From Sparassis latifolia (taxonomy: Eukaryota > Basidiomycota > Agaricomycetes > Polyporales > Sparassidaceae): a stretch of 64,000 nt of DNA. The position numbers were made by a program, and so were the translations under genes. This document shows, piece by piece, positions 6,291 through 37,500 of this stretch (position 1 is its first letter; the number at the start of each line of letters is the position of its first letter). The notes under the pieces were generated by a model. It saw nothing but the letters and a program-made list of their open reading frames with translations. It was not told where the DNA came from and did no database searches. The DNA lies in contig CM031557.1 of NCBI GenBank assembly GCA_018466975.1, positions 2,728,001 through 2,792,000 of the forward strand. Direction: 5' to 3'.

Positions 6291-7441
6291 GATTTTCTCT
6301 CTGTATTGTGTCCCCCACTCCTCGGTGGATATAGCGAGGCTCTGTGAAAGCGTCAATCATTGGACCGTTCCAGACTGTAAGCGTCAATTGCGTAGAGCTT
6401 AAGTGATGCAATGAGGAATAGCTACTTACCACCGCTCCGCGTTTACCAACGACACCAAAATTTCATTAGTCGGCCACCGCGCTATTCGACTTCGCTCAAG
6501 GTATTCGGTCTAGCCAGCGAGGAACGACCCGGGGCAAACCTTCCGCGGCACTCAGCTTGAAATTGCGTCTCCTCTCCCACCCCGGCGGCTATCAGTCATG
6601 CATCACTCTTCCAGGAGATGGCTTGATCTCTGGCACTGGCCTGGTAGGCAGTGATCTGACGTGTTAGTGCTTCAGGACAATGAGATAGGGAACCCTGGCC
6701 CCCGATTGGTCGCTCGCGGCGCGGTGCAATGTATTCGTCGTTCGTGTTTCGCCGCTGAGTGGACGCTGGGCGGTGCACTCAGTTGTGTTCTGGATTCTTG
6801 CCTTGTGTGGCCCATTCCCGCGTCGATGCGTACGTCGACCTCCATGTATGCGCCGGACCAACAGAACACTATTGGAGCCGTAGGAGCGCGACAGCCTCGA
6901 GCGACCAACACAGTCTTGTTCAACTTAATTGGCCCGCGGAAATCGCTTTGAAATATCGTTGCCCAAACACTCCAAACGTCCGCGGATGGGCGAACGGGCT
7001 TGGGGTTTTGCCATACTTTTCTCTGTTGCAATTGTTTTTCTTAACGATGCAGTAGTCTATCCTATTGGCTTTCGCTATGCCCGAATTGGAGGCGCCAGCT
7101 CTTAGCCTCCAACAATGCGGACTCCCCTCACCGAAATTAATGAACGACGGAACGATGAGCGCGCGCAAGCAAGCTTTTGCGCGTAAATATCCTCAACAAA
7201 GGCGCCCCGAGACATCAAAGGCATTTTCCGCTGATGGCACTGACGTATCCGCCCTGCTTCTTGTCGTCGTTCGTACTTTACTCAAGTCACCATCGTTTCA
7301 GGTGGAGCGCAGTCGGTGATGACACGAGAAGCAAACGATAGAACAAAGATACAAGAACACGAGCGTGGGAATCACCTTCACCTTCCCTCCCTACACGTAT
7401 CAGGGTCTCGTGTCAACCTTAGCAGCTCAAGAAAACAGATG

Positions 7442-7528
7442 TATGGTGGCATTTAGGTGACGGTTCAATTTCTGACACTAGCGCCTCCTTATCGGTTCGG
7501 TTGGCTGTTACCTCGCTCGATCAGCATG
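7442..7528 (+). repeat. left TIR of the 12.9-kb element
   Basis: Compared with the reverse complement of 20247-20333, the outer 29 bp are identical. A 13-bp stretch (7479-7491) is diverged. The next 32 bp, which include GGTTCGGTTGGCTGTTACC, are identical again, ending in GCATG. The preserved inner block may be a subterminal transposase-binding site. The adjacent target duplication CAGATG is at 7436-7441. Confidence 0.9.
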
Positions 7529-7689
7529 TTAAACCCCCAGTCACTCCGTAGGACTGCATGCCGAGCAAGTAGAGCTTTGTATCTCATATAGCAACCGTGG
7601 CTGGGCAGATAGTGTAGATACATAGTAATGACTTCAGTGGTAAACATATATGCATTCCTCGGCCCACTCCTACTGTCAGCAGCAGAACC

Positions 7690-9660
7690 ACATCCCACAG
7701 AAGAAATTGAAAAACATCGGGAAAGATGTGTCCAGGACCATGTTGCTGAAGCATCTGCCGTGGCCCTCGTGGTCTTCCGCACTCATGGTCCATAGCTCTT
7801 TCTTCAGCCGCACGATATCCTGCTCCTCCAGAGAGATAAGCGCCTCCCATTTTTTTTTAAAATGCCGCCTGAGTCGGTGTCAAGTGTGACGTCTTCAGTG
7901 CGTAGATATCAGCGATGGGGGATGTCTCGTCGACGACGTTCTCGACGGCCTGGTAGAGCGGATGAGCAAGGAGCAGAACACATGGAGAATAAGCTTACTT
8001 TGCGATATAGCATGCACGACGTAGCACTTGCCGCATTGCCACACGTCGTCGATCCTAGGAGGCAAGAACGACTCTGACCGAGGTAATTCTTCAAGATCTT
8101 CCACAGTGCTGCCTTGTTTCTTGTCTGCCGAGTTTCGTTGTGAGCTGGAGCCCCGAATTCGCCGCATCATGTAACCAGCCATGTCGTTCTGAGCTACGAG
8201 CAACGCCCGCACCTCATTCCGTGCGGCGGGTACACGCACGACCTACCTTGCGGCGGGTACACGCACGACCTACCTCGCTCTGTGTGTAGTACAGCAGGCC
8301 ACTCGGTACCTCAGTCCCGTAGCGCTCCGCCATCAAGAGAGTGTAGAGCATCGTCTGCGCGCGGTGCTCCATCCCGGTCACAGCACGGCCTGTCTTAATC
8401 TCCAGTGGCATCGTCCAGTTCTGCGTAGTGCACATTGGTGAGGCTCCCGTGAACGGACTTGAATCTCCGTCGATCTCGGAGATGACAGCTTGCACCGACG
8501 CGTCGACCTTGCCTTTCAGGCCGTACGTGGGTGACCAGATATCTTCTTCGACATCATGCAGCTGATAAATGGCAAGCAGGGATGTATGCGATTGCGAGGA
8601 TCGCGTATTCGTCAGGACCACACTAGGCTGCAGAGAGTTAGAACCAAGATGATGACTAGCGGGACGGTACCTACCTTCGGCTCCTGGCTAATGTGTTTCT
8701 CAGCAAACACTTTCAGCCCCTTCGCCCGGGCCTTCATCTCGGCCTTCGCCTGATCGACGCCCATGTCGATCCTGATGAGCTCACCGAGTCCCCGCCCTAC
8801 CACATCCGTGATCTGAGCGTCCACCCACCGCTCATCCCAGCGCCCCTCTGCAAGACACGTCTGCATCACCTCGTGCAGCATATCGCCCCACACGAGCGCC
8901 GAGCGCGGACGTCACATCCAGCGAGCGCCGCGTCAGGTTCGACACGAGCGCCTTCCGCCGACACTGGGGCGCGCCCGATAGCGAAGTCGCAGTGATGAGT
9001 AAATCTCGGTGTAGGATGAATAGGTTGACTTTCGCGGAGACAGTGATTGAAAGCATAGGTCCGCTTGACGACGATGACAGAGATGGCTCGAAGATGACGT
9101 TGACAATGTCGCCTGCAGATGCGGGCCTTGCCGTGAGATGGACAGTACTGTGAGTAGGCAACGATACTCACCGACACGGACGTCTGCATCTGCCCAGTCA
9201 TCTCTGAGGATGACGCACCTCCGCTCCTGGCCAGGAACTACTTCAACAGCGAGTGTCTGAGATACATCAGATCAGAGAAGCATTAAACGAGGTGAAAGGG
9301 GAAAAAGACGCGATGCCAGATTATGCATAATGTATCAGGCGACACTCACCTTCTGATAAGGGTGTGTCGTGGGTACTTCGTCGACTCTTATCACGTTGCA
9401 GCGGTTGCAGGTTTGTGGAGTGTACTTACTGCAGCAGAGGTGAGCGAAGCGAAGGTGAGTATAGAGGAAGACCCTACTGTTTTCTTTGGCGATTTAGGCT
9501 TCTTCGGACTCATAAAGTCGGAGTTCACGTCGTCCCAGTCTCGATCTTCGGCGCCCGCGACAAGTTCGTCCAAGTCAACACTTCGAGGTGTCAACATTTT
9601 AGTTGGGGTTTTGGGTATCACATTGAAATGCTTTTTGTGAGGAGAAGGAGGATGATGCGA
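7690..9660 (-). pseudogene. dna2: dna2 helicase/nuclease fragment, nuclease part only
   Basis: Read on the minus strand, the pieces line up in order with the N-terminal nuclease half of DNA2: a linker (VDLDELVAGAEDRDWDD), the nuclease core (WGDMLHEV; DIWSPTYGLKGK; PLEIKTGRA; EHRAQTMLYTLLM) and the iron-sulphur cysteine region (CGKCY, CMLYRK). The helicase half is absent: similarity stops near 7700. At least four lesions are visible: a 7-bp tandem duplication (8893-8906) that shifts frame before WGDMLHEV; a 27-bp tandem duplication (8223-8275); a loss of about 8 bp between CGKCY and CMLYRK near 8020; and an in-frame stop at 7857-7859 in an A/T homopolymer. It lies just inside the left end of the transposon, as expected for a captured host fragment. 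Confidence 0.85.
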
Positions 9661-10743
9661 CGTTGAAAAAGGAATTATCGAGACGAGATAGTAGATCGTC
9701 CAGGAAATCGACTTCTTCGCGCTCTGTATGTGTGACGGGTGGCATCGCAGCAGGTCTTTACAGAATTTATTCAATCTGAATAAGAGAGAGAGCACAGTAG
9801 AAAAGCTGTGAAGATTGTTCAAGAAACAACGAAAAGACAAGATGACATGCTCTGTACCTGAAATAGGCTCCAGGTAAAACCATATATCTTGTTGTAATAA
9901 TTGTCATAACTCTCTTAGTAGAGGTGTCGCCGCAAGGATTTAGTGGTCTTTCTCCGCTCCCAGTGCCTGCAGTCAGTGGGTACTTCCATATCGTCCGGAA
10001 GTCAGCGACCCAGATGACTATCACTGCCTGCCACCACGACAGGCCCACACCGAGGATGCCCGACACGAGCGTCCTGCAAGCGACCCCAATCAGTCAACCT
10101 AAATCAACCTGCAATTGGTCAGACGGTGGCGGGTGCACCAGTACGGCAGGGGCAGCTCGAGAGTCTGAAAATAGCAACGCACCGTTCACGGTCGTAATGA
10201 TTTTGGCTAGTTCTAGAGATCGTACAAAGTCATCTAGCCCACTCCTTTGAACGCGAAGTATTGGAAACAATACGGCTAGTATTGGGTGCAAAAGCAACGC
10301 TCACTTACTCGGTCAATCACAGAGGTTTTCGGAGTTTCAATCAGCTTACAAGCTGAGCGCAGATGAAGATCGTCTCCTGCAGGAAGGTAGGGCATAATTT
10401 TGTAAGGTATAATTAGGACAGTAGTGTAGGACTCTAAGAATAGTTCTCACCTTGCTGTATGTCAAAAATCAATCATCGTCAATGATTCCTGCTGTACCCT
10501 TTGTTGAGAAGGATGGCCCGGGTCACTGTATCTAGCACCTACTTACGGCGACTGCTAGATGTATGGGCACTCCAGCAGGTGAGGTTCTAATCCCTACGCT
10601 AGAGATACCACTTATATAGACTACTTTGCGCCTTGGTATGTCGCGTAAATATGTTTCCTATGGCTTGATTGGTCACCAAAAAATCGCTGTATTCACATTC
10701 GTACGCCTACGGGCTACAGGGCAAGACTGAGTATAGGTCCTTT
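9661..10743. other. transposon interior, unassigned
   Basis: This lies between the dna2 remnant and the 3' end of the integrase gene. A minus-strand frame at 9767-10066 has a hydrophobic stretch (WWQAVIVIWVADF), and another sits at 10094-10297, but neither shows a recognisable family or clean splice signals. They may be another degraded captured gene. No RNA gene was seen. Confidence 0.35.
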
Positions 10744-12596
10744 TCAGTCCGACGCATCACTAAGATCGTCATCCGTCCATTCACAAAATCCCAACTCCTG
10801 CGTACCATCGGAGGAATTCCCTGCGTCATGATCATCCTGCATAACAGGACTGGTAGTTGACCGTTGAGTTGTCGGCCCTGCACCTTGCATAGCAACTGCC
10901 CCCCGAGGTCGACGAAGAGGAAGCACACCTATCTCATTTTCGCCATCACTGACACCTCCAGGGGTCAACGCCATATGCTCCGCCACGGCACCTTGAATTT
11001 CTGCATCATCTGCAATTGCACAGATTTGCTCCAACACTGCATTGTAGACATCCCAGACGTTCTCACGGCTGATTGCAGGTGACCCGATTGCAGCATAGAT
11101 AGAGTCAGCATGCGCTGCAAAAGCAGGTGGTACGAGATGGAACACCGGGTGGTTGGGAGGAGCGTAGGTGTCGCGGACCTCTTCGAGATGGCTTGCGTCA
11201 ATCTTGACCTGTGTTCAGCATTACGTATGAGTACAACAAGATCAGTGAAAAGATCAAGCGGATGCTTACTGAGAAGTCTAGGGAACCATAATCTTTCGGA
11301 TAATTGAAGATCTCAACGGGTCTTCCTCTGGGAAGCAGCTTATGCCTGTTATGGCGTGGCTTCGTGTCGTTGAACTGCTCTACGTAGTTATCCAGCTCGG
11401 ACTGCAGCCAGGGAATGAAAACATAATGGAAGACGAGGCTAGCAGTGCAGTTAAGTCAGTCTATCTCGAGCGTAGTGACCACCAAAAAAAACACTAACCG
11501 TTCCAGGGGATCATCAGGGTCATAGAACCCATCTTGCATGCCCTGCTCAAGAAGAGCTTCAAATCCAGGAGTCCAGCTTTGTCGCAGCAACCGCCAACAG
11601 ATTTCCGGTTTGATATTGCGTAACTTGGCACGAAACTTGTGCTGAAGTGTGTCGGACAGTGTAGGATCGAGCCGATGGCGAAGGATGGTCTGTGCATTGG
11701 CAATACCATTGTTTTCAGTGCCAAGGTCACTTTGTGTCAATAGAGGGATCACTGGTGGAACGTACAGATTCAAAACATTTTCGATACGTGAATCAGTAGT
11801 ATATGCACGTACCTCCCAGAGACTCTACTGTGTCACAGTACCACCCACAAACCACACGGGGGTTTCGATTAGTCCACCAAATTTTCAACCACAATAGTCG
11901 ACCAGAAAAGGGCTCCATGCCAAGATGTAGAAACAACTGATAACGCCGCCACTTATCGTGTTGGTCCATGCACCAGATATCATTGACGCCAGCGGTCCAG
12001 AACAACTTCCGGACAAGACGATGTCCACGCCTGTTATCGACCTCATCGGGGTGATGCATTCTCATGTACTGGCGTATTAGTTCCCTGAAAATTCAAGTTG
12101 CAGTCACATGCAGGAATCAAAACGATGCAAGACGCACTTCGACACAGAAATCTTCTCCTCACGAAGTAATGTGTTCTTCATGTATCCTGCACCGTGACCA
12201 GGAAAGCGTTCGCGCACACGCTCTATTGCAGGGCCTACACTGTCGATGGTGTGCTGTTGTCCTCGACTGGCATACAGCTTCCATGTAGCACGCTTCTTCT
12301 TTAGCAAGTCGACACTGATGTCAGTTAGAATCAATTAGCACTGAGTATTCCTCTGGAAGAGGAAGAGAGAACGAGATACATGCCTTACATTGTACAGATC
12401 AGTGTCATAATGACGTCGCAGACGATTCACTATCTCTGGATTCTTGAATCCGCGTGCAACATAGTGTTCAATCCAAGGTCGAATTTCTTCTTCCGGTGCT
12501 GTGTCAAGATAACCATGAGATGGATAAGCAAATTGAGCAGTGTATGGCATGCTTACGGGAAGGTTTGTGCCCATTGGCTCCTTTCGGATTCGGCAT
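10744..12596 (-). CDS. integrase-core domain protein, candidate transposase (492 aa)
   Basis: Seven exons can be joined without a stop: 12557-12596, 12396-12498, 12138-12314, 11813-12084, 11499-11751, 11270-11438 and 10744-11208. The start MPNPKG leads into an N-terminal helix-turn-helix-like region (residues about 15-100). The integrase core then shows IWCMDQHDKW with the first Asp, WLKIWWTNRNP, and LTQSDLGTENNGIANAQT with the second Asp. The C-terminal tail is acidic and ends DLSDASD. This matches the basidiomycete integrase-core family, a DDE-type integrase fold known mainly as uncharacterised transposon-like genes. Six of seven exon edges use good signals. The exon 2/3 junction uses a weak GTACAA donor. 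As the only intact DNA-rearranging enzyme inside the 12.9-kb element, it is the likely transposase (inference). Confidence 0.82.
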
Positions 12597-12904
12597 GATG
12601 ATTGCAAGTTCAAAAAGAGAATTGAGGCATTGAGAGATGAGGGTTGGATATCATAAAGAGACTTAAGGATCCAGAGGTATTGAGAGACGAGACTCAGAGT
12701 TGTCGAGAGACCAGAGCGTCAAAGTTCATCAAAAGCCGATCGATTGGGTGCGAATAAGATTCATTGTGGATGCTTAATTTAGACGGTATTGACGAGAGGA
12801 AATTAGGCTTACAATATGGTAGGAGCACATGTAGCACGTCTCCTGGTGATACATCACAATGTTGACGTTCAATGCCACGGGCATCGACGAGCCGCGTGGT
12901 GTTG

Positions 12905-13690
12905 GCCCAGCTGGTGCAGAAGAAGATGGGGGAGCTGCACTGAAGGGGCAGAGAGAGGTGGTGCATCGGGAAGCAAGAGCAAGCCAAGCACACCAACGCA
13001 CATCAAGTCAGTCCACTTCAATGCGAAGCTGGAGCATGTGAAGCTGTTTCTTGCTGAGCAGAGGCCGCTCACAGTCTCGTGTGATGGGAGCCCGACTGAG
13101 GACACGAGCGGGATGGAGAGTGACTTCCCCACGTTCATTTATGGGCCCGACGAGTTGCAGATGGGAGGGAAGCTCTCTATGTGGGTCGTGACCATGCCTG
13201 TGCATGTGCGCATGGATGGAGACATCATGTTGGAGGAGCTCACACTCTCGCAGGATGGCACGATTGTGCACGGGCGGGTGCGGATGGGCAACGTTGCATT
13301 CAAAAAGTGGGTCATGGTCCGGTTGGTCCGGTTTACCTTCGACTGGTGGCAGACAACTAGTGTGGTCACTGCCCAGTATTTCAAGTTTCTGGAAGGTGGC
13401 AAGTTCGACTGGTTCATCTTCACGATCTGACTGAACGACATGCTCATGCGGATTGACGAAAAGACACTGTTCTGTGATACAGGGTCATCGGGCAGGATAT
13501 ATGGGATAACAATGGCGGGAGCAACTATCAGGTCAAGTTCTCTAGGGTGAGGCCGCAGTCACTTCCAACTGCCGAGAAGGCTGATGCTGGTATCGCCAAC
13601 CTAAAAAGCAAGCTGGAGAAAGTCACAGTCAGTCGGGAGACATTAGGCTTTGCCGCATGGAGATGATTTCAGGATCACGTGTTCGCCTTG
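12905..13690 (+). pseudogene. CBM21 glycogen-targeting PP1 subunit fragment
   Basis: The translated strand contains a CBM21 module typical of protein phosphatase 1 regulatory subunits (Gac1/PPP1R3 type): SVHFNAKLEHVKLFL, then VRMGNVAFKKWVMVR and FTFDWWQTTSVVTAQY. It is broken by TGA at 13428-13430 inside the conserved FTI-R-LND segment, where a C-to-T change would explain CGA becoming TGA. The reading frame changes downstream, where IWDNNGGSNYQVKF continues in another frame. No start codon or N-terminal RVxF phosphatase-docking motif is seen. This is a second captured host fragment in the 12.9-kb element, placed between the integrase and the alpha-kinase gene. Confidence 0.8.
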
Positions 13691-13955
13691 ACGCCAACGA
13701 TGTCCCAATCCTTCCTGTCCAGTACTACTATTAGACTTCAACCTTCAACCTTCAGCCTTCAAACCTGACTGCTGTCTCACTTTCCTGATGACATCTGATG
13801 GCTGCATCTCAGATCTTGCGGGTCACCGCGCGATTCCAGGAAGCCCCAATTGTAGCACATGTACGAATTTTCATCGGACTTAGATACTTCATGACCAAGT
13901 CTCTGCTTTGGATTCACCCCTCTCGGCCTGCAGTGCATCTGCAGGATTTTTGAAC

Positions 13956-16916
13956 ATGGATCTTAACTTCACTCCGGCTCAACCACCTCCCGACTTTCAG
14001 TTGTGTGGTAGATGCCGACAACCGTATGGTCTCGAGGTGAAGTTTGTATATGTTGCGGGCCCCCCCGGGTCTCCAGGCCGACTCTGTTGCCCGGAATGTG
14101 CTGAGCACTATGCCGAAAAACGACGCGGAATGCACCAGCAACCTGGTGGCAGTGTCCAACCGAGGAGTCAGGCTAATATAAATGGTACGTCTTTGAGATT
14201 TGAGTATTTGCATTAAAATCATTTGTGCATGATACTGCAGCATTCACGGAAGTATCTGACCGCACTTTGAAGAAGGCGACTTCAGCAGCACAGCGTGGAG
14301 GTATGCAATCTTGCTAGCATACCTTGTGTGGCAGCTGACTCGGTTTGATATATTGAATTTGATGGCATACTAGTCGCTTATCCAGTCAGTCGCTTTACTC
14401 CAGACAGTTCAGCTAGTAGTAGTCGCGGACATGACAATACAATGCCGCCACCTCTGTTGCCTGGTTTCAGCAGGTCTGGTGGTAACTCCTCCACGTCTGT
14501 CTCCCGTCCTGGATACAGCAGCAACCATCAACGCTACAAGGAGTTACGCCAGAAGATGCTCCTTCAGGCCATTGGAACACGGCTAGTGACTGTTGGTTTT
14601 GCGTTGCATTACCTCAAACCTGAAGGGAAGTCAGGAACATTGCTCGTTGGTGTGAGTAATTTGATTCACATCCTCTGTTGACGGTATCAATTTATTGGCA
14701 CTGCTATTTTACAGAACATTGAGCGTGATCACGAAATTCCGCCTTCTATCACGCGTGCAGAGCTGCGTACCACTATTGTGAACGTTCTCCTGCCATTATG
14801 GGAGGAGTGGTCTTATGGCTATTCCTTGCCTATCGATGACTTGGAGCTTCGCAAATCTCCCAAGCTTATCTTATATGATCCGCGAGAGCCAAACGCAGAT
14901 CCTGAAGAACAAGTTATCTACCGTTTCTTCTACCGTGGTACAGCTAAAGACCCGACACCGAAGTTTCAAGCTTCCACTCGTGTCAATCTTTTACTTGTTA
15001 TGAAGACCAAGGTATACGAGGATGCACTGGAATGGAAGAGCAGCATTCTTGAGGTTCGTTTCGCTGCACTCGTGCATAGAACAATCTGACCTATGGTGCA
15101 TAGTCCAATGACAATAACTCACTCAGCGTCAAGACTGATGGGGATGAACTGATGGATAGTGTGAGTTTTCCCGATCAGATCGTGGTAATCCATCTTGTAT
15201 ATAAGTCATTAAACTCTGCAGGTATTTAAATCGGTGATGAGCGGCAGAAAGCCTGGCCATTCAAACAGGTCTACCCTTGGTGCGACCAAGGGCAAACAGT
15301 CTCTCGAGGAGCAGTGCAATGTTGCAGTGCCATCTGCAGGTTATCGTGGTGATCAATTCGGTGCAGTCGGCCCCCTCATTGATCCTTCCCGCGCCACTCA
15401 TTCCGCAGTGCCAGCACCCTCTTCATCACGCACTTCATATTCGGGAGACATTGGCGTCCAGGGTGACCATGATGAACACGTCCCTGAAGATGACATTCAA
15501 GCCCCCAGGATCAAGCGAAAGCGCACTGCTGTGGAGAGAGGCCATTCAACGAACCTATCACATGATCTAGCGAAGTCCATGCACGGACATGCACCCCAGA
15601 CGGCCCACATTGAGCCCGGGTTTGAAATCAGTGAACCCTCACGCTACATCCGCACACCTTTCGCTCGGCCAGATGTTGCTAAAGTTGAGCAAGCACTTGC
15701 GATGCAGAGCCAGGTTCGTCGGCAAGCCAAGCCGCTCCGTGAGTTAGGCTCTACTTTACTGTCTTGATCTACTGAAAATTCTGAGAACGTGCTTCTTGGC
15801 AGTAAAACAAGAGGCATCAATGATACAACTCTTTCCCATTCCATGCACTCCCTTCGATGTGCTCCTAGAAAAATGCCGCTTCGTGATCAATTTAGATGAC
15901 ATGACCAATCGCACCTTGGCTAAGTTGTTTGTGAACACAGACTCGAGCGCTATGGTTGGGCCTCCTGGGAGCTTCAAGACATGTCACGTCGCCTCACTTG
16001 AACGAGCACCGCTGATGCCCGGTGCTGAATCTATAGAGGGGCTTACTGAGATCGTTGCCAAACGATGCTTTTTCAGACTACCCGCAATCGTCAATGGCTC
16101 GTCTACATCCACTCCCCGACCGAAGCGCCAGCGATTCAACCTTCACGATGAACTCGAGAAGATGCTTGCCGAAGCGAATTGTTTGTTCTGGGGTATATCT
16201 CTGATGGATCTGGTTTACAGCTTCATCGATGATGCCTTAGATAACAAGTCTTCGGAGGAGGGACCTCACATCGAGATACCTCGTATGCGTTTTGTTCATG
16301 CAGGTCTCGCTGTCCCATTGGAGAAGGAAGGAGCTGTCTATCTACTGGAGGAGAGGATCGAAGGGGCATTCGTGAAGTATATCCTCAACAGTAGTGCAAA
16401 ACCGATCGCAGATCTGGACACCAGGGAACATGACCGTGCTCTATTTCTCTGCTTCGCCCAGCATGTCCAGTATGATCTGTCGAGTAAAAAGGTTTATCTT
16501 TCAGACTTTCAGGGTGAGTTCTTTTAGGGTGGATACATTGGATTTGTTCACTAACGAGAGTACGTTGGATGGAACCAGGGGGTAACACGCTCTTGACCGA
16601 CTGTCAAGTTATCACCTGCGAGTAAGTTCTCCAAGATCTAAAGTCCCCTGAAGGCTCATATTGGCACATTTGCAGGGCATACATGAATAATTTTGCTGAA
16701 GGGAATCTTGCACATGTGTTTGAATGCTTCGAGGAAGAACATGAATGCAACAAGTACTGTTTGTATTTCAGTCTCGCCGCCTTTACTCCCATAAAAAAGG
16801 ATGTGGTGGCGAGATCAGACAGTCCATCTTCCGGTGATTTATTACAGTCTCATGACCGCAGTAACTGGGGAGAACAAGAGATGGAGATGGAGACGAGGGT
16901 GACAGACGCACCGTGA
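13956..16916 (+). CDS. alpha-type protein kinase family protein (824 aa)
   Basis: Nine exons join in frame: 13956-14184, 14241-14300, 14374-14651, 14715-15053, 15104-15160, 15222-15738, 15803-16513, 16579-16622 and 16677-16916, all with GT-AG introns of 50-73 nt. The N-terminus has a CxxC...CxxC pair (C17, C20, C45, C48), probably a zinc ribbon. A linker rich in Ser, Pro and basic residues follows. The kinase domain covers about residues 530-790, with GSFKTCH (K552 as the candidate nucleotide-binding Lys), DELEKMLAEAN (from 609), the catalytic-site region SDFQGGNTLLTD (727-738) and the end motif HVFECFEEEHECNKYC. Alpha-kinases phosphorylate Ser/Thr. Agaricomycetes carry many copies of unknown role. 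This copy has no stop or frameshift although it lies inside a transposon, so it is either recent or selected cargo. Confidence 0.88.
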
Positions 16917-19900
16917 GGACTTTGGTTCCAGCTCTCAGATCCATCACCGAGTGTATTATTTTCTTGGTCTGGTATACAAATTTCGAGTCATAGTATGGTT
17001 TGAATCAACATAGTCGATGGACCCAAGTGCCCGACAAGTTTCGCGCATTTGAGGCTCAAAGGAAGATATGAACGCTGAGCGAGCGCTGAGCACTGAGCAC
17101 TCAAGACACTTGTGATCAATGAACGAACTCGAACATTTGGATGGCTACAACCTTCACCGGTATTCTTCTCTGCGTCGGATCCACTAGTGCTAGAAACTGT
17201 TCACCATCAGTCTCTTCCCCACCTCGTCCTCACATAGGTGTCGTGTTTCAAGCTTGGGCTGGCGCTCGCGACCTGCGGAAGACATTCAGTTCCACGGCCG
17301 TTCTCTACAACTGCAGCTGGTGCAGTGTCATTGCACCAAAAGCACGAAGCAAACTCATACATTGGCACCCATGTTAACTTCCCGTTCGTCCCTATGTACT
17401 GCGAATTGTCTTCGAAATTACAGCTAAATTTGCTGTCTCGTTGCATGCCAACAGCACTTCATAATGCATGGTCTCCCATCCTCGCTGGTCTTTTCTCTGT
17501 TAACACCATTGTCCTCAAATACTCCAAATGTATCGTCTGGTCCTCCAAAGTTTTCGTGAGTGTCATCAAGGAATGTCTCTGCGCTTGTGGACACAACTCA
17601 GACCTTGTACCGGTTGGTCCATGTTTTGCTTTTCCACTTCAGCATGTAACTGATTGCAAATAAGTGCACGAAGGAGTTGCACCAAGACTCCATGCTCTCA
17701 AATGCGAACAATGGGTTCGTGCCCGCTGTCGACGTCTGCGCAATGATCAACGCGGGCCAGCTCACATATCTTGATCTCGTCGTAGCCGCAGCGAATGATG
17801 GCCGTGCGCGTCGAGGTCGGAGGGACCGCGATCGAGCATGTGTACAAGGAGGACAGCTTGTACTTCCCCGACCATTGTCGGTGATGTCGATCTGCAGTTG
17901 CAGATTGCCTAGGACAAAAGTAAGTATCACAACACCATGACCTCTGGTCAGGGCTCCGTGGGCTGCAAAGTGAGAGTGTAACCCGAAGGTGATCATCAGG
18001 GATCGGTTCGGGTGGCTGGTGCAGACATCCCCCCCGAAGCCGCTAGACTACCCCATGCAGTCGAACGTGCCTCAGCACACTCATAGATTGTCTTGTCGCT
18101 GGCTCCTTGGTGTTCAGGAGTCATCGGACGGGTTTGAACGCATGAGTTGTATTCTCCGCACTCATAAGTCCGCTAAATGATTCGGGCGATGTCTCGCGGT
18201 TGTAGAAGGTGCGTGCATATCGTATTACCGTTCCCCCGTGTAGCCGTGACGATATGCTACTTGCAGAACGGATGGTGTAAGTGCCACTGAGGATGCTTCT
18301 CGGTGGATATTGACCATGTGGAATCTCCCAGTTCTTGAATGAGCTCATGTTATGGTCGGCGAACAACGGTTTGTTGACCAGGTGAGAGATTCCTTGCGTC
18401 TTCCCTGGTGATGAAGCACTGATGGCCATGTAGCGTTGTTTCTGTTTCTGTTATCATCCTCGTACGCATCCCGATCTGCTGATTGCGTGGCATTACTGAA
18501 CTTATAACCCCGGTCTGGGCAGTTCGTAGCAGTGCACGATCTGGTCTACTTTGGGGTGTACATCATCCTCAGCAAGCGTATGTGGTGCCCGACTAACTGC
18601 TTCCTTCTACATCTGACCCGAGTGCACCCTGAGCGTAGTGCACATCAACGCCCTCCTCGCAACGTAGGTCATCTCCGAATTCTTCGGTCACACCCTGCTC
18701 ACATGCTGAATTTCCCGATGCTCTGGTTTCCCCGCATTCCAGCCTGAACCAGAGGAAGGTGATCCGCGGCCGCGGCGTCGACGACGATGACACGGATATA
18801 TCGGGCTGGCGTGCATCGGGCAACGGTGCGACTCGCGAACGCTCGTTACCGACATTCGACTTTGGGGACTGGAGCACGAAGAGGACAGATGCCCCGGTGG
18901 GTAGCCCTTGTGCTGTGTTTCTGCTGGTGACGTTTATGGTGACGGTCTCCGTGCAGACGCAACCATCTTTGGGCGGCGTGCGTGTCGTCACCACAATGAT
19001 GACGGATCGGACGCTGGATCTTTGTTCTGGTGAGGATAGGGATGCGGTCTCCGCCATAGAGGACGGGTTTGTGGCGAGGGTGCGTCATAAATTCTATTTG
19101 GTATGACAAATGGTTCTGAGCTCATGATCTGTACTTGCAGCCGGAAGGTCTAGAAAATGCTCTCGCGGCGACAGATGAAGAGCATCGCACACGGAGCACA
19201 GGACTGTAAGCTCACAGAGCTACTTGTACGTTTACTACGCCACTATTCGCCCACTAATGTGTCCTCGATCTGCTATGCGTATCCCGTAGTGCGTGCAGGC
19301 GCAGAGTCTCGTTGGGCATCAAGTGAAGTCGAGCATCGAATTGCGCTCGGTAGGTCGGCTCGAAGTCCATCATTGCTGTACCATCCTGACATTACGCCGT
19401 AGCTCTCCATCGCACACGCCGTCCACAAGCTCCCCCTCGTCGCGCTTAGGCTGTGCCATGGCGATCGCTGGCCCACTGCCTTGGACTGCGACATCTCACG
19501 CCTCCAGTGCATTGCGCGGGAGGTCGCGGCGGTACTCCCGACATTGAAGGGACGTCGGATTCGATGCGCCGTTGCTTCTCCCTCGTCATGACGTCTGCCG
19601 TTGGTTCCGTGTGATGGACAGAAATGGAGATACTCCCCAGCTCCGCTTGCTTTCTCGACAGGAGGGTGATGGGCTAGAGGCGCAGCTAGCAACGATGGGC
19701 CCTGCTTGACGGCCAACCACCGTGTTGGCCTCACGCTTCATCCGGATAGATTTCCACCCGACTCTGCCGTCCTACGCGCGTCCCATTGCCCACCATTTCT
19801 TGGTCATTGTCCGTTTTCCCTGCACGTATATTCTAACTCACCGCAGTGCCTAGCATCAAGAATGTTCGCCTTTTCAGATTTTCTTTCGGCTGTACATCGT

Positions 19901-20246
19901 CACTTCGTTATACCGCTATCTCCTTCCCGTCTAAGTTGTCTATGCTGTGAGTGTGACGGAGAGGGGAAGAGATTCAGTTATAGTATATGCCTACATTCTG
20001 TCACAGCTTGAGCCGGAGAGTATGACATGCACGAAATAAAGAACTCACCCAATATTCGGCCGTTCACCCTCGTTCAAGCTTGAAAAGACTATAAAGACAC
20101 TATAGAGGATACCTACGACGTTGCTAAAGGGAGAGACCAAAGTAGAGGGAGATTATACGCAGGTGCCGAGTAGAGGGGTGCGCCAACTGAACGGTCAGGC
20201 ATAATATAGAGTGATCAATGTGTGTGGAAGTGGCAAGGGTCTTTGC
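16917..20246. other. transposon interior, unassigned gene debris
   Basis: There is 3.3 kb between the alpha-kinase stop and the right TIR. Two short stretches look like old coding sequence: a plus-strand frame near 17793-17880 reading VEVGGTAIEHVYKEDSLYFP, then frameshifted to DVDLQLQIA and a stop; and a frame near 19400-19560 reading VHKLPLVALRLCHGDRWP. I cannot name either family. A plausible short intron (GTAGCC...GTGCAG) lies near 18900-18957. No intact gene is supported. Confidence 0.35.
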
Positions 20247-20333
20247 CATGCCGATCGAGCGAGGTAACAGCCAACCGAACCGATGAGCTGATGGCAATGT
20301 CAGCAATTGAACCGTCACCTAAATGCCACCATA
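20247..20333 (-). repeat. right TIR of the 12.9-kb element
   Basis: This is the reverse complement of the left TIR (7442-7528), with the same 87-bp length, identical outer 29 bp and an identical inner 32-bp block. The target duplication CAGATG follows at 20334-20339. Confidence 0.9.
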
Positions 20334-21133
20334 CAGATGGTCAAAGTTGATGGGACGAATTATGGTTAAATAATTCGCCGAATCAACTTGGATCATCTAC
20401 ACTTCCGTGAATGCCTTTAAATTTAGCTTGTTGCTATCTTGCTACTGCATTTTGCCATCTTTGTCCTCTCGAAGCTGCCTTGAAGCACATCTCAGATTTT
20501 CCACAAAGCTAAGGCTATGAAGGGAGCGACTGTGATCTATGATTTCATTTTCTCATTGTAAAGTTTCTGCTTGCCTATTAATTAATACTTTATGTACGCG
20601 AGGGGGGCACCTGCACTCCTTACTACATAATGTCTTTCGAGTCATACCTATCGCGTTTTTCTGCGACCAGCTGGCGACAGCCCGCGGTCACTGCAACGCC
20701 GCACTTCTGCTTCTCCAAATTCCGAGCTTGGCGTGTTACAAGTAAACGCGTGACGTCACAAACTTCGCGATCACATGCCACTCGCTCCGCGCACGCGTCG
20801 CGCACGCAAACAACATGAACCGTTGGTATCACCAAGAAACAACAGAAGACCAATGAATACAAGTGCCGCCGAACACTTCAAACACTCTCAAATCCAAAAA
20901 TTGCACGAACTTTCCTGCACGACGAATATCTCCAGCAAACCCTCAACTAATACCATTGACACCAATAACACACTAACAATTGAGTCATGCGACTACGCTC
21001 GAGTGCAAAGTTACCACCGCACCACACGCTGAGCTGTCAGAAGCAAGCTGACCGGCTCTAAGACTGAACGAAAAATCAGCAAGTATGATCTCACGCGAAC
21101 ACACTCTGACAAGCACTCACCAGTGACCGCTTT

Positions 21134-24163: not shown

Positions 24164-25830
24164 ATGGGTAACGCCCAGAGTGCTGTATGTGCCCCAACTC
24201 TTCTACTCGCACGTCCAATTCTAACATACAAATGCAGGAACAGGAGGGCCACGAGAGATGGCAGGCTGAAGAACGCGCTCGCGAGGAGCAGCGCAGGCGC
24301 GAACAGGAGGCCCACGAGAGATGGCAGGCTGAAGAACGCGCTCGCGAGGAGCAGCGCAGGCGCGAACAGGAGGCCCACGAGAGATGGCAGGCTGAAGAAC
24401 GCACTCGCGAGGAACAGCGCTGGCGCGAACAGGAGGCCCACGAGAGGTGGCAGGCTGAGGAACGCGCTCGCGAGGAGCAGCACAGGCGCGAACAGGCTGA
24501 ACACGAAAGATGGCAGGCTGAAGAGGCACGGCGCCGCGCAGAAGAGGCGCGCCAACAAGCAGAGCATGAGAGGTGGCGCATGGAGGAAGAACAGAGGCGC
24601 ATTGAGAATGAACGACGGGAGGCGGAAGAGAGCAGAAGACGTGCCGAGGAGGAGCTCCGCCGTGTCGAAGAGGAGCGGCAACGCGCCGAGGAGGAGAGGC
24701 GACGTGCGGAACACGCGAAGTGGGAAGCAGAGGAACAAAGGAGGCGTGCAGATGAGGAGCGCCAGCGTGCAGAGGCTGAGCAATGGCGTGCAGAGGAGGA
24801 AAGGCGTCGCTCGGACGAAGAGAAGCAGAGAGCGCAACAGGAGAAGGAACGTGCAGAGGAGGCAAGCCGGGTGGCTGAAGCTCAGAGGCGCCAGGCCGAT
24901 GAAGAACGGAGACGTGCAGAAGAGGCTCAACGGCTGGCGGAGGAGGAAAGACGGCGAGCCGAAGAAGACAGCAAGAGAGCGGAGGAGGAGAGGCGGAAAG
25001 CGGAGGAAGCCAAGGAGAAGGCAAGGACTGCTCAAGAAGACGCAGAACGAGCCTCTGCAGCGGCTGAGAGTGCGGCGGAAGAGGCTCAACTCGCACAGCA
25101 GGAGGCCGAGAAGAACTTGAAAGCCGGAATACGTCCTGTCATATGGCCGACGGAGGAGGAGATCCGCATTCACAAGGAACGGCTGCAGTACCATGAGGGG
25201 AGGCTACACTTCGCGGTCGCTGGCATTGCAGGTAGTGGCAAATCCTCGCTCATCAATGCTCTCCGAGGGATCAGCAACAGTCACAAGGACGCGGCGCCCG
25301 TCGGAGTCACGGAGACAACAAAGGTCATCTCGCGGTATCAGGACTCCAATCCCGAGAGGCTATTCGTCTGGTACGACGTGCCCGGCGCGGGGACGTTGGC
25401 TATACCCGGCTGGCAGTACTTCAACGACTATGGCCTCTACATCTTCGACGCCATAATTGTGCTCTTCGACAACCGCTTTACCGAGACAGACATTGCTCTA
25501 CTGCGGAACGCTGCGCTTTTCCATATCCCGACATACATCGTGCGGTCTAAATCGACTCAGCACATCGCGAATCTTATGATGGACCTGGATTTTGGGGAAG
25601 ACGAAGACGAGGGCCGTTGCCGCGCGACCGCGCGCCAGACCTACATTACGGAGACTCGAGACAGCGTCGCGCACAATCTGTGCGAGGCAGAACTTCCTGG
25701 ACAGAGGGCCTACCTTATCACGGCAAAAGAGATCCTTTGTGAGGTGGTCAAGGGCGGCATGCCGAAGGACATCATCGACGAGGCCGAGCTGCTCAGCGAT
25801 ATGCTGCAGGAAGCGCATTCTCATCGTTAA
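24164..25830 (+). CDS. IRG-like GTPase with myristoylation motif and coiled coil, copy 1 (537 aa)
   Basis: Two exons: 24164-24184 and 24238-25830. The 53-nt intron has donor GTATGT, branch CTAAC and acceptor GCAG. Using the intron gives the start MGNAQSA, a good N-myristoylation signal (Gly2, Ser6). A start without the intron would lose it. Residues about 8-310 form a charged coiled coil that begins with four 21-residue repeats. The G domain follows: P-loop GIAGSGKSS (336-344), switch I VGVTETTK and G3 DVPGAGT (387-393), all as in immunity-related GTPases (IRG/IIGP). The expected (N/T)KxD motif is SKST (444-447), so the guanine-specifying Asp is absent. A membrane-tethered, self-assembling GTPase is a fair inference. 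IRGs act in cell-autonomous immunity in vertebrates. The fungal role is unknown. Confidence 0.82.
24238..24489 (+). repeat. 63-bp coding minisatellite, four units
   Basis: Four nearly identical 63-bp units encode the 21-residue heptad-type repeat (E-Q-E-A-H-E-R-W-Q-A-E-E-R...). The paralogue has three units (41010-41198). This accounts exactly for the 21-residue length difference, so unit number is changing by slippage or unequal exchange. Confidence 0.9.
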
Positions 25831-31111: not shown

Positions 31112-33206
31112 CTTCGGCATTATCCGGATTACATAGTTCCAGCGCTTCATCAGCGCTCCCATGAGTGTTTCCGTTCAACGCGGAGGCCGCCCTCTGCGTG
31201 TCTGAAGACGGCAGCGATATACGTACGAATATTAATATCTTTCTGTGTCCCCAATATCGGTGCTCATGTATTGCTATCGACATAGCATCATTTTTAGTCT
31301 ACTTGTGAGACTCCTTTTAACTCCAATCACTAACGCTTTATTTGCGCTGATCTCTGGAAAAGATGCACAACATGGAGAACACCCCCAAATCTCAATAACA
31401 TCATCTGTTCGTACTGCAGCGCCGAGGCGTGAATGGGGCCCAACTGTTATGGGGTGACACCCTATGAAGCGCCCGTGAGGGCTGTCCGCCCCTTTTCTTT
31501 CAGAGCCGTTCGTGCTATGGTGGGTGCTCGGGTAAATCTATGGAAAAATTCAAGCTTTGTCGTTCATTTCTACCACATTTTGTGTTGGTAAGCTTGCTCC
31601 ATCTACTCAGGTACTTCCATCCTGCAACCAGCTTCCCTCTCACCGGCTTGTGAATACATGCATGCCAGTGAGTACTGGCTGCTTGGCAGCTGTACTTCAA
31701 GATGCCTGGATTCTCTTCGACTGCTTTAGTTTCTCGTACCGTCGAGGTGATAAATATTTCCTTCTTCCACGATTATAGAGTGATGATCATTACTACCCAT
31801 CAGAGCATTTTCCATTGTAGGAGAACTTGTGCCGGCCGCTAACAAACACGCTCTTGGAAAATACAGCTCTGTAGGGTAAGTAGATGCTTTCGTACCCTTT
31901 CTGCTTTGGTTATGGGTGCGTGCATATTTTTAAATGCATATATCCTCAAAAACAGTCACGGATACTTGCCGCTGTAATACATGCACCATTCAAACTAATG
32001 TCGAAACGGAAAAGAACAGTTCAAATGTCTTAACATTGCCCCGCCTCCTCGGCCCTCCCGTGTTTTGTCGCACGCACTCATTGTCTACAAGCTATCCTAT
32101 GATCTGTGGTGCAGAAGCCGCGTACCGTAATGCTAGAATCATGAGTGCCGCTAACCCCAATGTGATTCGGCTGACGGAAATCTACGCACTCCAAGCGGAT
32201 GAGCAATACTGACAGTCGAACTGGTCAGAAGGCAACGCCGCTATAGGTTATTTCAGCTGCAGCAGACAAATTACGTTGTGGGTGTATTGGTCGCAGATCT
32301 GCTCAGAATTATCTGAGACTCATCCGTATCGTTTAGCGCACTGGGATTAGCCAGAACGTAAAATCCCTGGCGAGAATCGTACGACGGGGTAGTTATTCCA
32401 TCACTTTCCAGGTACATCATCTCGCCATGCAAATCCTCCAGAGGGTGCTCAACACAGGTCGTGCTGCAACGGGATTATACAATCTGATAGATCTGGTACA
32501 TTGAAACAAGATCGCCGCGGCCCCACTTTGGTGCAATCATACACGCGTTTATGCTTTGGCCCACCGTCCCTCAGACGCTGGGAGTCGCAAATGAATGCTC
32601 TCGCTCTCCACATGCCTAGTCCATCGCCAGAGTAAGTCTCTGAGATCACTCTGAGACTGCGAAACTCCCCACCATACTTCTTACGTAGCTCTATCGATCC
32701 ACAACTGAAACACTTTCACTACAGCCGAGCAAGAGCCTTGAGCGCAGGTTACACGATCTCCCACTCATCTAACGGCACTACGAAGGTTTCCAGCGTGTTT
32801 CGTCTATACTTGGATGCATCAAATTTTCTGTGCGTACTTATTAGTCTCAGCCGAGTTAGCAGCCGAAATTCACGCCACCGCGTGGCTGCTTGTGGAAGAG
32901 GATGCGTACACTGCATGCAACGAGTATGTCTTTTTTATTCAAGCTCCAGATAGTCTCAGAAGGCTAAGGTGTCTCTGCGAAGGTTTGCGGTCCCACACGC
33001 GCGCTCAAGGTAATTTGCCCAATGTCCCGGAAAAGCCGAACGAAGTTGTGAAAGTGCGTACTTTAGTTGGTTTGCCGGACGCTTCGCCATCAGTAACACT
33101 GAGAGAGAAGCTTTTAGCCGAAGCGAAATTTTGAACGAAAATTTGGGGGCCATGGGAGTACACTTTAACGAGCACGTCCGAGTCGGCGCACAGCGGGACG
33201 CGCATG

Positions 33207-33214
33207 CATAAAAG
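33207..33214 (+). promoter_or_regulatory. TATA box of secreted-protein gene copy 2
   Basis: CATAAAAG, 54 bp upstream of the ATG at 33268, conserved with copy 1 (21541-21548). Confidence 0.6.
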
Positions 33215-33267
33215 GCCGAGTTGTTCAACAATTCTTTCCCCACTTGTGTAAGCATCACTCTACAGTC

Positions 33268-33608
33268 ATGCGCTCGTACACTTTTCTCGCTCTTGCTGCC
33301 TTCGTCGCGTTTGCTAGGGCTACGACTGTGAGTCTTTCCCGCCGGCAGGCCGAGTGCCCTGAGGCCTACACTGGATAGTGCGTAATGTCTTTGATTGGTG
33401 TATCACATCGGTTTATTGTATGCGTCATAGTTTGTGCTACGGCGAGGAGATCATTCTCTGTCAGAATGGGGAGCCAGACAATAATTACTCCGGAGTCGAG
33501 TGTAACGTATGTCTGAACTTATCCATGAGCTGTATTCTTCTCTAATCTCCATTTTACCAGCCTGGTTACCTTTGCTGGGCGACCAGCGATGAATACGGAT
33601 GCTCTTAA
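33268..33608 (+). CDS. small secreted cysteine-rich protein, copy 2 (77 aa)
   Basis: Exons 33268-33377, 33431-33506 and 33561-33608, with introns of 53 and 54 nt at the same codons as copy 1. Signal peptide MRSYTFLALAAFVAFARA, then an Arg-Arg site, then a mature domain with six Cys at the same spacing as copy 1. Intron 2 is identical to copy 1 over 54 nt and intron 1 differs at one base of 53, yet exon 2 differs at 22 of 76 bases, 21 of them amino-acid-changing. The protein stops four residues earlier than copy 1. The conserved frame, splice sites, promoter and cysteines argue that both copies are active. The mature surface has evidently been under selection to change. Target and function are unknown. 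Confidence 0.85.
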
Positions 33609-33840
33609 ATAGCGGTCACTGGTGAGTGCTTGTCAGAGTGTGTTCGCATGAGATCGTACTTGCTGATTTTTCGTGCAGTCTTAGAGCCGGTCAGCTTGCT
33701 TCTGAAAGCTCAGCGTGTGGTGCGGTGGTAACTTTGCACTCGAGCGTAGTCGCATGACTCATTTGTTAGTTTGTTATTGGTGTCAATGGTATCAGTTGAG
33801 GGTTTGCTGGAGATACTTATTCGTCGTGCAGGAAAGTTCG

Positions 33841-34070
33841 TGCGATTGTTGGATTTGAGAGTGTTTGAAGTGTTCGGCGGCACTTATGTTCATTGGTCTT
33901 CTATTATTTGTTGGTGATATCAACGGTTCATATCGTTTGCGTGCACGAAAGTTTGTGCGATTTTTGGATTTGAGAGTGTTTGAAGTGTTCGGCGGCACTT
34001 ATGTTCATTGGTCTTCTATTGTTTCTTGGTGATACCAACGGTTCATGTTGTTTGCGTGCGCGACGCGCGC
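33841..34070 (+). repeat. 115-bp tandem duplication, two units
   Basis: Units 33841-33955 and 33956-34070 both carry tggatttgagagtgtttgaa, then a run ending in ggttcat and gtttgcgtgc. Copy 1 of the repeat (20810-20920) has a single unit, so this duplication is specific to copy 2. Confidence 0.8.
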
Positions 34071-34536
34071 GCGGCGCAAGTGGCATGTGATCGCGAAGTT
34101 TGTGACGTCACGCGTTTACTTGTAACGCGCGCCAAGGCTCGGAATTTGGAGAAGAAGCAGAAGTGCGGCGTTGCAGTGACCGCGGGCTGTCGCCAGAAAG
34201 ACGCGATAGGTATGAATCGAAACACATTATGTAGTAAGGAGCGCAGGTGCCCCCCTCGCCTGGACAACTACGGTGTACATAAAGTAAGTATGAATTAACA
34301 GGCAAGCTGAAACTTTACAATGAGAAAATGACATCATAGATCACAGTCACTCCCTTCATAGCCTTAGCTTCGCGGAAAATCTGAGATGTGCTTCGACGCA
34401 GCTTCGAGAGGACAAAGATGGCAAAATGCAGTAGCAAGATAGCAACAAGCTAAAATTAAAGGCATTCACGGAAGTGTAGATCATCCAAGTTGATTCGGCG
34501 AATTATCTAACCATAATTCGTCCCATCAACTTTGAC

Positions 34537-37500
34537 CATCTGCTTTCTTGAGTTGCTAAGGTCGACACAAGAGACCGTAGTTGGGCTTGGAGACTCTGAT
34601 ACGTGTAGGGAGGGAAGGTGAAGGTGATTCCCAGGCTCATGTTCTTGTATCTTTGTTCTGTTGTTTTCTTCCCGTGTCATATTGATTGTGCTCGACCTGA
34701 AACAATGGCGACTTCAGCGAAGTACGAACGACGACAAGAAGCAGGGAGGATATGTCCGTGCCATCAGCGGAAAATGCCCTTGATGTCTCGGGGCGCCTTT
34801 GTTCAGGATATTTACGCGCAAAAGCTTGCTTGCGTGCGCTCATCGTTCCTTCGTTCATTAATTTCGGTGAGGGGAGTCCGCATTGTTTGAGGCTAAGAGC
34901 CGGCGCCTCCAATTCGGGCATAGCGAAAGCCAATAGGACAGACTGGTGCAACGTTGCTAGACGAAGCTAGAAAAAAATTGCGACAGGGAGGAGTATGGAA
35001 AACTCCAAGCCTCTTCGCTCGTTCGCGGACGTTTGGAATGTTGTGACAGTACTATTTCAAAGTGGTCTCCACGAGCCAATTCAGTTGAACGAGACTGTGT
35101 TGCGGTCGAGGCTGTCGCGCTCCCGCGGCTCCAATAGTGTTCTGTCGGTCCGGCGCATACGTGGAGGTCGACATGCGGGAATGGGCCAGACAAGACAAGA
35201 ATATAGAACACAACTGAGCGCATCGCCCAGCGTCCACTCAGCGGCGAAACACGAACGACGAATACATTGCACCGCGCCGCGAGCGACCATTCGGGGATCA
35301 GGGTTCCCTATCTCATTCTCCTGGAGCAGCAACACGTCAGATCACTGCTTACTAGGCCAGTGCCAGGGATCAAACCATCTCCTGGAAGTATGATTGATAG
35401 CCGCCGGGGTGGGAGCCCAATTTCAGGCTGAGTGCCCCGGGAGGTTTGTGACCGGTCGTTCCTCGCTGGCTAGACCGAATACCTCGAGCGAAGTCGAATA
35501 GCGTGGTGGCGGACCAATGAAACTTTAGTGTCGCTGGAAAGCGCGGAGCGGCGGTAAGTAGCTATTGCATCACTTTCGCTCTACGCAATTGACGCCTACA
35601 GGCTGGAACGGTCCGATGATTGACGCTTTCACAGAGCCTCGCTATATCCACCGAGGAGTGGGGGACACAGTACAGAAAGAAGATCACAAGGGCACTCTCA
35701 TCCCGCGGCACTGGTAGGAGCCGCAAATTGCCCTGCTGCGACACGGAGGTACAGGTTGACTGAGGGTGACGCAACGCAGAAGAGTCTGATAGCGATAGTA
35801 ATACCTCTCTCCTCCTGCGGCGATGGTTCTGAATCACAGCATTAATACAATGTGGAAGGAAAAAGAATTCGGTGTACTGTCGCCTCCGCTGAGGTTCCAA
35901 ACACCGGAGGGTGTCTAAGGCAGGTATTCCCGTTAGAAAAATATTTTGTTTTCCGTCGTGGTGCAGGAAAAGATCCCAGCACCTTTCTCTTCCCGCGGAG
36001 CTGGCTGCGGACCCATGTCAATACGATGTGGAAGTAAGGAGAAAACTGACGAACTTCGTAGCACTGGTGTCTGAAGTGGATATTTTCAACAGAAAATAAA
36101 TCTCAGCAATGCAGAAGGGTCCTCCTACTGATCAGTTGGGACCTGAAACTGCAACAAATCGCTCGCGTTAGCCCATCGAGGATTTCGAACCCCCAACCTT
36201 CACAGCAGCAACTCTTGCTTTTGGGATAAGATTCTGACGCTCTATCCAATTGAGCTAGACTTCGGGCTATGGGATAGCCCGTAGAGGACGCTACCTTGTA
36301 GACGACCGAAATCCTCGGCCTCTGGATCGCTCCGAACCAACTCCGAAGACACTGAGCCTTCTCTCTCGCTAGAAAGAGGAGCTGGTGCTGATAACTGGCC
36401 CATACAATCTAGCTCGTGCGGAAGACTAAGAGGGGTCGGACTCCCGTAGACCCCAACGAGGTAGTTTGGAGAAAACGGCACCGAGTGAAGTGGATGAGAA
36501 GAGGGGGGTGGCGCGATTTACGCCTACGTCATGCGGTGACCCGCACGCGTTGAGCCAGCCGCCCAGTACGGGTGGCGCAGGCAGGCACGATAGCTCGCGA
36601 TAGCACGCCGGCGGCCTATGCACCGAACATTGAAACTTTGCTCACGCGGAGCACGCGTGATGGCGATGACGAGCAGTTTTGTTCTCTGAACATGTTGTGA
36701 TAGAACACGTTGCATGGCACGGGCAGCCGGTGTTGAGCCATAATAGGCGCCGTATCGAGCTGCCATCAACGAAAATCAAACACGACGACTGGCGCTCACA
36801 TCGCGAGGGTGGAACATGGAACATGGAGGGATTTATGCCTGTATCGGTCGGAGGCGTCGGGCGACGGGTATCGGCGTTGCTTGCGAAGGCGGAAACCACG
36901 CAGCGCAGCTTGCGGACAAGACGGCGCAGACGGACAAAGAGGAGATAGAGTTGCAACACGAGGTGGTCACGCTGCCCAGAGATTGTTGTCAGTGGCGTAT
37001 GAAAGTCGAGCGCAAATGAAACTCCCCGATGGCGCAGCACTGTGGAACCGCTGCGGCGGAGTTCACCGGGGCCATCAGCACGTGCAGGCCAAGAATGAAT
37101 GTACGACTCTGAGGTCGGGGATTTGTGGCGCGCCTACAGTGCAATGGACGCGTAAAGGAAGGCCGGAATCATTGACCTTTGCAGCCACTCATTCTGCCGC
37201 AGCGTTACCGCTCGGAACAATGATAACAAAGTCACGCGGAGAAATGTTGATGCTCGATACGTCGACGACAAAGGTGGCGGGCCCATCGGTGGCTGCAGCG
37301 GCAGCAATACCGTTGCCGCGAGTGGGGACGGGGGAAGGTACTGCGCCGAATGGCTACGACGTTGGCGAGATGGGGCAACAGTGGCCGAAGAGCATCTTTC
37401 GCTGCCCCGATCGCTCTGATCACGATTACCGCACTGGCAGTGGCAAGGCGAATGCCGGGGGTGGCCATCTCTGGAAACTGGGGACGCCGGACACGCATGG

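What the first reader, a model, noticed from the sequence alone, without database searches (positions are those of the whole stretch)
7436..20339. A 12.9-kb TIR transposon with a clean target duplication and a preserved empty site
Seen: 87-bp imperfect inverted ends (29 bp identical at the tips), CAGATG on both sides, and the same locus on the other repeat arm (34537-34542) with a single CAGATG and no insertion. This defines the element to the base. Its size, the integrase gene, captured host fragments and an intact kinase gene do not match a standard fungal DNA transposon. It may be an undescribed class of large gene-capturing element.
Basis: partly seen in the sequence, partly recalled or inferred. 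Interest (0 to 1): 0.92.

Follow-up and report, generated by a model that had tools for sequence, protein, structure and literature searches.

The report
IS3EU jumping gene with alpha-kinase
A 12.9-kb jumping gene in a mushroom-type fungus, cleanly bounded and present in several shorter versions in the same genome, turns out to be a new member of a known transposon superfamily (IS3EU) that carries a transposase, an alpha-type protein kinase and pieces of host genes.

Summary
The element is window 7442-20333 (12,892 bp): tips identical for 29 bp, CAGATG on both sides, empty site at 34537-34542. Four further two-ended copies (3.4-9.0 kb) lie in the same genome, each with its own 6-bp duplication. 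'Undescribed class' fails: 6-bp TSD, TIRs over 30 bp, TAYGG..CCRTA tips, and a transposase with an oppositely oriented alpha-kinase are published IS3EU features (PMC12730594, passages). The 'integrase' is an open 496-aa rva_4 protein; among 35 relatives tested, the only NCBIfam models matched at E 0.01 are IS481 and IS3. The kinase is an open 814-aa alpha-kinase. 9 of 19 kinase relatives share species and contig length with a listed integrase relative. Two copies are internal-deletion derivatives that kept the kinase's 3' end and moved after the deletion. Captured DNA includes part of a DNA2 gene and a CBM_21 fragment. New member of a known kind; the kinase's role is the open question.

The parts
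7436..7441 (.). left target site duplication CAGATG
7442..7528 (+). left terminal inverted repeat, starting TATGG
7720..10005 (-). captured piece of a DNA2 gene, about 90% identical to C8:937809-940120
10744..12596 (-). transposase gene (rva_4), 7 exons, 496 aa, no stop
12967..13638 (+). fragment with a CBM_21 hit, 82% identical to C4:3123749-3124422, between the two genes
13956..16916 (+). alpha-kinase gene, 9 exons, 814 aa, no stop
10440..16546 (.). stretch missing from the C7 and C8 deletion derivatives
18069..19284 (.). stretch 89% identical to C2:625868-627105 (likely captured; gene not identified)
19322..19950 (.). stretch 95% identical to C8:539981-540608 (likely captured; gene not identified)
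20247..20333 (-). right terminal inverted repeat, ending CCATA
20334..20339 (.). right target site duplication CAGATG
34537..34542 (-). empty paralogous site with a single CAGATG on the inverted repeat arm

Best explanation
It is a DNA transposon of the IS3EU superfamily, most likely cut-and-paste. Its own DDE transposase (minus strand) would bind the TIRs, excise the element and join it to target DNA with a 6-bp stagger, giving the 6-bp duplications. The alpha-kinase, transcribed divergently from the transposase, is a long-standing second gene of this lineage, probably helping transposition or countering the host (inferred). The element has picked up pieces of host genes (DNA2, a CBM_21-domain gene, probably two more). 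Internal-deletion copies were presumably moved in trans. Shown: ends, TSDs, copies, empty site, two open reading frames, deletion derivatives, homology to the DNA2 locus. Inferred: catalysis, kinase function, the capture mechanism, movement in trans and present activity.
For: TATGG..CCATA tips and 6-bp TSDs in 5 of 5 two-ended copies match the published IS3EU description. The transposase has 7 exons, GT-AG introns with one GC-AG, and no stop, and hits rva_4 at 3.9e-12. Of 120 listed relatives (157 found) I picked 35 by hand for an alignment; scanned one by one at E 0.01, they match two NCBIfam models only: IS481 (9 of 35, best 5.8e-8) and IS3 (6 of 35, best 1.9e-8). Pfam gives rva_4 in 35 of 35, HTH_21 in 8, DUF6597 in 3 and HTH_32 in 2. 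The alpha-kinase is open and opposite to the transposase, as published for TET-bearing IS3EU. 9 of 19 distinct kinase relatives share species and longest-contig length with a listed integrase relative, four of them on contigs under 300 kb. The C7 and C8 copies lack 10440-16546 but keep the kinase 3' end, have different TSDs, are 95% identical to each other and share 96 differences from the DNA2 locus in the captured piece, so the deletion came before at least one transposition.
Against: The window transposase itself matches no IS model (only an unrelated hit at E 0.24); the IS3/IS481 link rests on its relatives. Profile comparison with one IS3 protein is not significant (probability 2.2%) and no better than with IS30 (1.9%). 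tblastn of one relative, P0076, against plasmids found nothing. No Repbase IS3EU sequence was at hand, so no tree was made. 10 of the 19 kinase relatives show no contig match. The second alpha-kinase/integrase neighbourhood (C9:224586-227853) has both genes on one strand, its kinase is not detectably similar to this one by tblastn, and no TIR/TSD pair was found there.
Confidence: 0.93

Rival explanations
1. A new superfamily of large gene-capturing transposons.
For: Size, captured fragments and kinase; the window transposase alone shows no IS-family hit.
Against: Tip motif, TSD length and the transposase/alpha-kinase layout are those published for IS3EU; the tested relatives match only IS3 and IS481 models.
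Confidence: 0.04
2. A Polinton/Maverick-like or Ginger-like element with a retroviral-type integrase.
For: Large size, integrase-type gene, and a 6-bp TSD, which Polinton also makes.
Against: Ginger1 and Ginger2 make 4- or 5-bp TSDs. No polymerase or capsid family appeared in the 19 of 35 listed reading frames scanned plus the two spliced genes. Relatives match IS3/IS481 models.
Confidence: 0.02
3. The alpha-kinase is only a captured passenger, not a working part of the element.
For: The element carries other captured host pieces; no test of kinase function exists here; 10 of 19 kinase relatives show no contig match to a listed integrase.
Against: It is open over 9 exons, was present before the deletion derivatives arose, the pair recurs in other Agaricomycetes, and the same pair is reported in rust IS3EU.
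Confidence: 0.3

Closest known systems
IS3EU families of Pucciniales with a TET gene (Kojima 2025, PMC12730594; abstract and passages seen)
   Same: 6-bp TSD, TIRs over 30 bp, TAYGG..CCRTA tips, transposase and alpha-kinase in opposite orientations
   Different: Those families have a TET/JBP dioxygenase gene between the two genes. Here no TET hit appeared in the frames scanned (19 of 35), and the gap holds a CBM_21 fragment; the host is Agaricomycete-like, judged from its protein relatives.
Styx of Zymoseptoria (PMC10853768; passages seen)
   Same: A fungal TIR transposon derived from an IS3EU ancestor that gained extra coding sequences
   Different: A different host phylum (recalled: Ascomycota) and other added genes; its sequence was not compared.
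hAT elements carrying histone H3 pieces in Pseudocercospora fijiensis (PMC6710886; passages seen)
   Same: A fungal TIR element of about 9.5 kb that captured a host gene
   Different: hAT transposase, 20-bp TIRs and 8-bp TSDs.

Membership tests
IS3EU | 6-bp target site duplication | tested here: met
   5 of 5 two-ended copies; one with 11 bp of extra tip inside the left duplication
IS3EU | TIRs over 30 bp ending TAYGG..CCRTA (TA..TA) | tested here: met
   87-bp imperfect TIR, TATGG..CCATA; definition
IS3EU | DDE transposase related to IS3/IS481 | tested here: met
   Met through relatives: IS481 in 9 of 35, IS3 in 6 of 35, no other NCBIfam model at E 0.01. Not met by the window protein alone; single-sequence profile comparisons uninformative
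IS3EU | alpha-kinase in opposite orientation to the transposase (reported for the TET-bearing families) | tested here: met
   transposase on minus strand, kinase on plus strand; report
IS3EU | TET/JBP gene between the two genes (only the TET-bearing families, not defining for IS3EU) | tested here: not met
   no TET hit in the scanned frames (19 of 35); the frame scanned between the genes hits CBM_21
IS3EU | tree position with Repbase IS3EU transposases | not testable with these tools
   Repbase sequences not held
Ginger1/Ginger2 | 4- or 5-bp TSD | tested here: not met
   6-bp TSDs; definition
Polinton/Maverick | 6-bp TSD | tested here: met
   definition
Polinton/Maverick | DNA polymerase B and capsid genes (recalled) | tested here: inconclusive
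   no such Pfam hit, but only 19 of 35 listed frames and the two spliced genes were scanned
Zisupton (KDZ group) | 8-bp TSD | tested here: not met
   6-bp TSDs; definition

The most novel reading that the evidence does not exclude
Fungal IS3EU elements are built on a two-gene core, a DDE transposase and a divergently oriented alpha-kinase. The kinase is a true transposition or anti-silencing factor kept across Basidiomycota, and the stretch between the two genes is a slot where cargo is taken up (TET dioxygenase in rusts, a host gene fragment here).
Probability: 0.4. Interest if true: 0.55.

Novelty: new member of a known kind. Interest (0 to 1): 0.36.

Why it matters
It ties a group of unnamed 'integrase core domain' proteins of mushrooms (rva_4) to a concrete element with exact ends and TSDs, and it shows that an alpha-kinase gene in such a fungus can be a transposon gene. 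A protein kinase kept beside a transposase is unusual and testable. Of the papers listed in my searches, only Kojima 2025 (PMC12730594) was seen to link alpha-kinase genes to fungal DNA transposons (one search listed 20 of 22 papers; one other paper, PMC4469406, mentions alpha-kinase once and was not read).

Tried and rejected
Polinton, Ginger and Zisupton were considered and set aside on TSD length, domains or transposase type. Rfam: no family reached its cut-off in 7000-21000. Profile comparisons with single E. coli IS3 and IS30 proteins were uninformative. tblastn of P0076 against plasmids: no match. Solved-structure sequence search with the family alignment: two weak unrelated hits, no transposase. 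A scan of the C9 neighbourhood for TAYGG..CCRTA tips with a TSD printed none. A first transposase splice and a first kinase splice gave stops because of wrong splice sites; other exon limits gave open frames. No base was changed.

Full report
Observation. The window has an element at 7442-20333 with inverted ends identical for 29 bp, flanked by CAGATG. The other inverted repeat arm keeps the uninterrupted site with one CAGATG, and the joined flanks align to it with no gap at the junction. Of 29 20-bp inverted pairs in the window with equal 6-bp flanks, 28 have palindromic 6-mers inside the long arms and are automatic; the element is the only other one. The arm sequence 34000-37100 matches, besides itself, the other arm and a 64-bp stretch beside it in this window, and one 92-bp stretch on C11 at 75%. 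So the empty site is a local paralogue on the same contig. The insertion most simply came after the duplication; an assembly artefact of the arms was not excluded.

Family in the genome. The 20-bp tip has 15 matches at up to 3 mismatches, 11 of them with 0 or 1, against 2 for the reversed control. Five two-ended copies were delimited: C6, this one (12,892 bp, CAGATG); C7:211590-219952 (8,363 bp, CGGATG); C8:2914069-2923107 (9,039 bp from tip to tip, GTTCAC, with 11 bp of repeated tip outside the left tip); C5:3744822-3749423 (4,602 bp, AATAGA); C4:1510435-1513869 (3,435 bp, CTGAGG). Two further ends have no partner tip in the fetched DNA.

Genes. The transposase gene on the minus strand (12596-10744) has 7 exons and 496 aa without a stop and matches PF24764 rva_4 at 3.9e-12. 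A protein search found 157 relatives and listed 120, the best from Grifola frondosa at 63%; nearly all named ones are Agaricomycetes, with some from Calocera (only the 7,999 candidates sharing most words were scored). An alignment of 32 sequences shows conserved blocks around DQHDKW, QSDPGTEN and N.KPE..W; I read D151, D210 and E251 as the likely triad (inference; E300 is also nearly invariant). In an alignment of 35 hand-picked relatives the NCBIfam models matched at E 0.01 were IS481 (9 of 35) and IS3 (6 of 35) and no other; Pfam gave rva_4 in 35, HTH_21 in 8, DUF6597 in 3 and HTH_32 in 2. The window protein alone matched no IS model. The kinase gene (13956-16916, plus strand) has 9 exons and 814 aa without a stop and matches PF02816 Alpha_kinase at 3.6e-14.

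The pair is old. Two kinase searches gave 8 and 17 hits, 19 distinct (the second scored only the 7,993 candidates sharing most words). Nine of the 19 have the same species and the same longest-contig length as one of the 120 listed integrase relatives: Grifola frondosa (locus tags A0H81_05042 and A0H81_05045), Suillus occidentalis, Boletus edulis, Favolaschia claudopus, S. clintonianus, S. subluteus (two contigs), S. ampliporus and Serpula lacrymans. Two of the nine kinase relatives, both from S. subluteus, carry no precomputed Alpha_kinase domain. Four of the contigs are shorter than 300 kb; for the five above 1 Mb the coincidence alone is weak evidence, though the Grifola locus tags are three apart. 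The other ten show no match. Distances and tips on those contigs could not be read. In this genome the Pfam search found two alpha-kinase loci: the element, and C9:224586, about 2.5-2.7 kb from a distant transposase relative. There both genes are on one strand, tblastn of this element's kinase does not detect that kinase, and no TIR/TSD pair was found, so that place does not fit the standard layout.

Deletion derivatives. The C7 and C8 copies lack 10440-16546 (transposase gene and most of the kinase gene) but retain 16547-16919, the kinase 3' end. They are 95% identical to each other over the two long aligned blocks. In the DNA2 piece they share 96 differences from the DNA2 locus that this copy lacks; taking that locus as ancestral, most of their changes are C to T or G to A (92 of 146 and 87 of 136; 29 of 64 in this copy). 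So the kinase was already in their common ancestor with this copy, and the deleted form moved at least once, presumably in trans.

Captured host DNA. 7720-10005 is 90% identical (blast alignment with gaps) to C8:937809-940120. The fetched locus (about 1.5 kb on each side) has no exact TIR tip and continues into reading frames with helicase motifs, recognised by eye from recall; together with the Dna2 Pfam hit in the captured fragment I read it as the host DNA2 gene. 12967-13638 matches C4:3123749-3124422 at 82%, and the frame there has a CBM_21 hit. 18069-19284 and 19322-19950 match C2:625868-627105 (89%) and C8:539981-540608 (95%). None of these four places is among the 15 tip sites.

Comparison. 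Kojima 2025 (PMC12730594; abstract and passages) describes TET-bearing IS3EU of rusts with 6-bp TSDs, TIRs over 30 bp, ends TAYGG..CCRTA, and transposase and alpha-kinase in opposite orientations with a TET gene between them. PMC10045372 (passages) gives TA..TA ends and usually 6-bp TSDs for IS3EU. PMC10853768 (passages) derives Styx from an IS3EU ancestor that gained genes. PMC8955403 (one passage) reports IS3EU in Ganoderma leucocontextum. PMC6710886 (passages) reports a fungal hAT element carrying histone H3 pieces, so gene capture by fungal TIR elements has precedent. The element meets the general IS3EU features that could be tested; a tree with Repbase members could not be made.

Verdict. 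A real, well-delimited transposon and a new member of IS3EU. Its interest lies in the conserved kinase, the deletion line that kept moving and the captured fragments, not in a new class.

Noticed in passing
window 3757-26546 and 32390-41394: Local inverted duplication, blocks about 89-97% alike, including a pair of frames with an IIGP (interferon-inducible GTPase) domain at 24172-25827 and 39672-41264; the order of segments differs between the two arms.
   Followed up: partly
window 24238-24552 and 40975-41198: 63-bp tandem repeats inside the long open frames that carry the IIGP domain.
   Followed up: no
L066/L067 (C9:224586-227853): The only other alpha-kinase locus found in the genome lies about 2.5-2.7 kb from a distant transposase relative, on the same strand and without recognised TIRs.
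   Followed up: partly
L025 459-469 (C8:2914058-2914068): An 11-bp extra copy of the tip stands between the TSD GTTCAC and the left TIR.
   Followed up: partly
C7 and C8 copies (L024, L025), DNA2 piece: C-to-T and G-to-A excess against the DNA2 locus (92 of 146 and 87 of 136 changes), suggesting methylation-linked or RIP-like mutation of the deletion derivatives.
   Followed up: no
G000, ten loci, such as C2:1423224 and C10:1492980: Ten further rva_4 integrase loci, possibly other elements of this kind; their ends were not examined.
   Followed up: no
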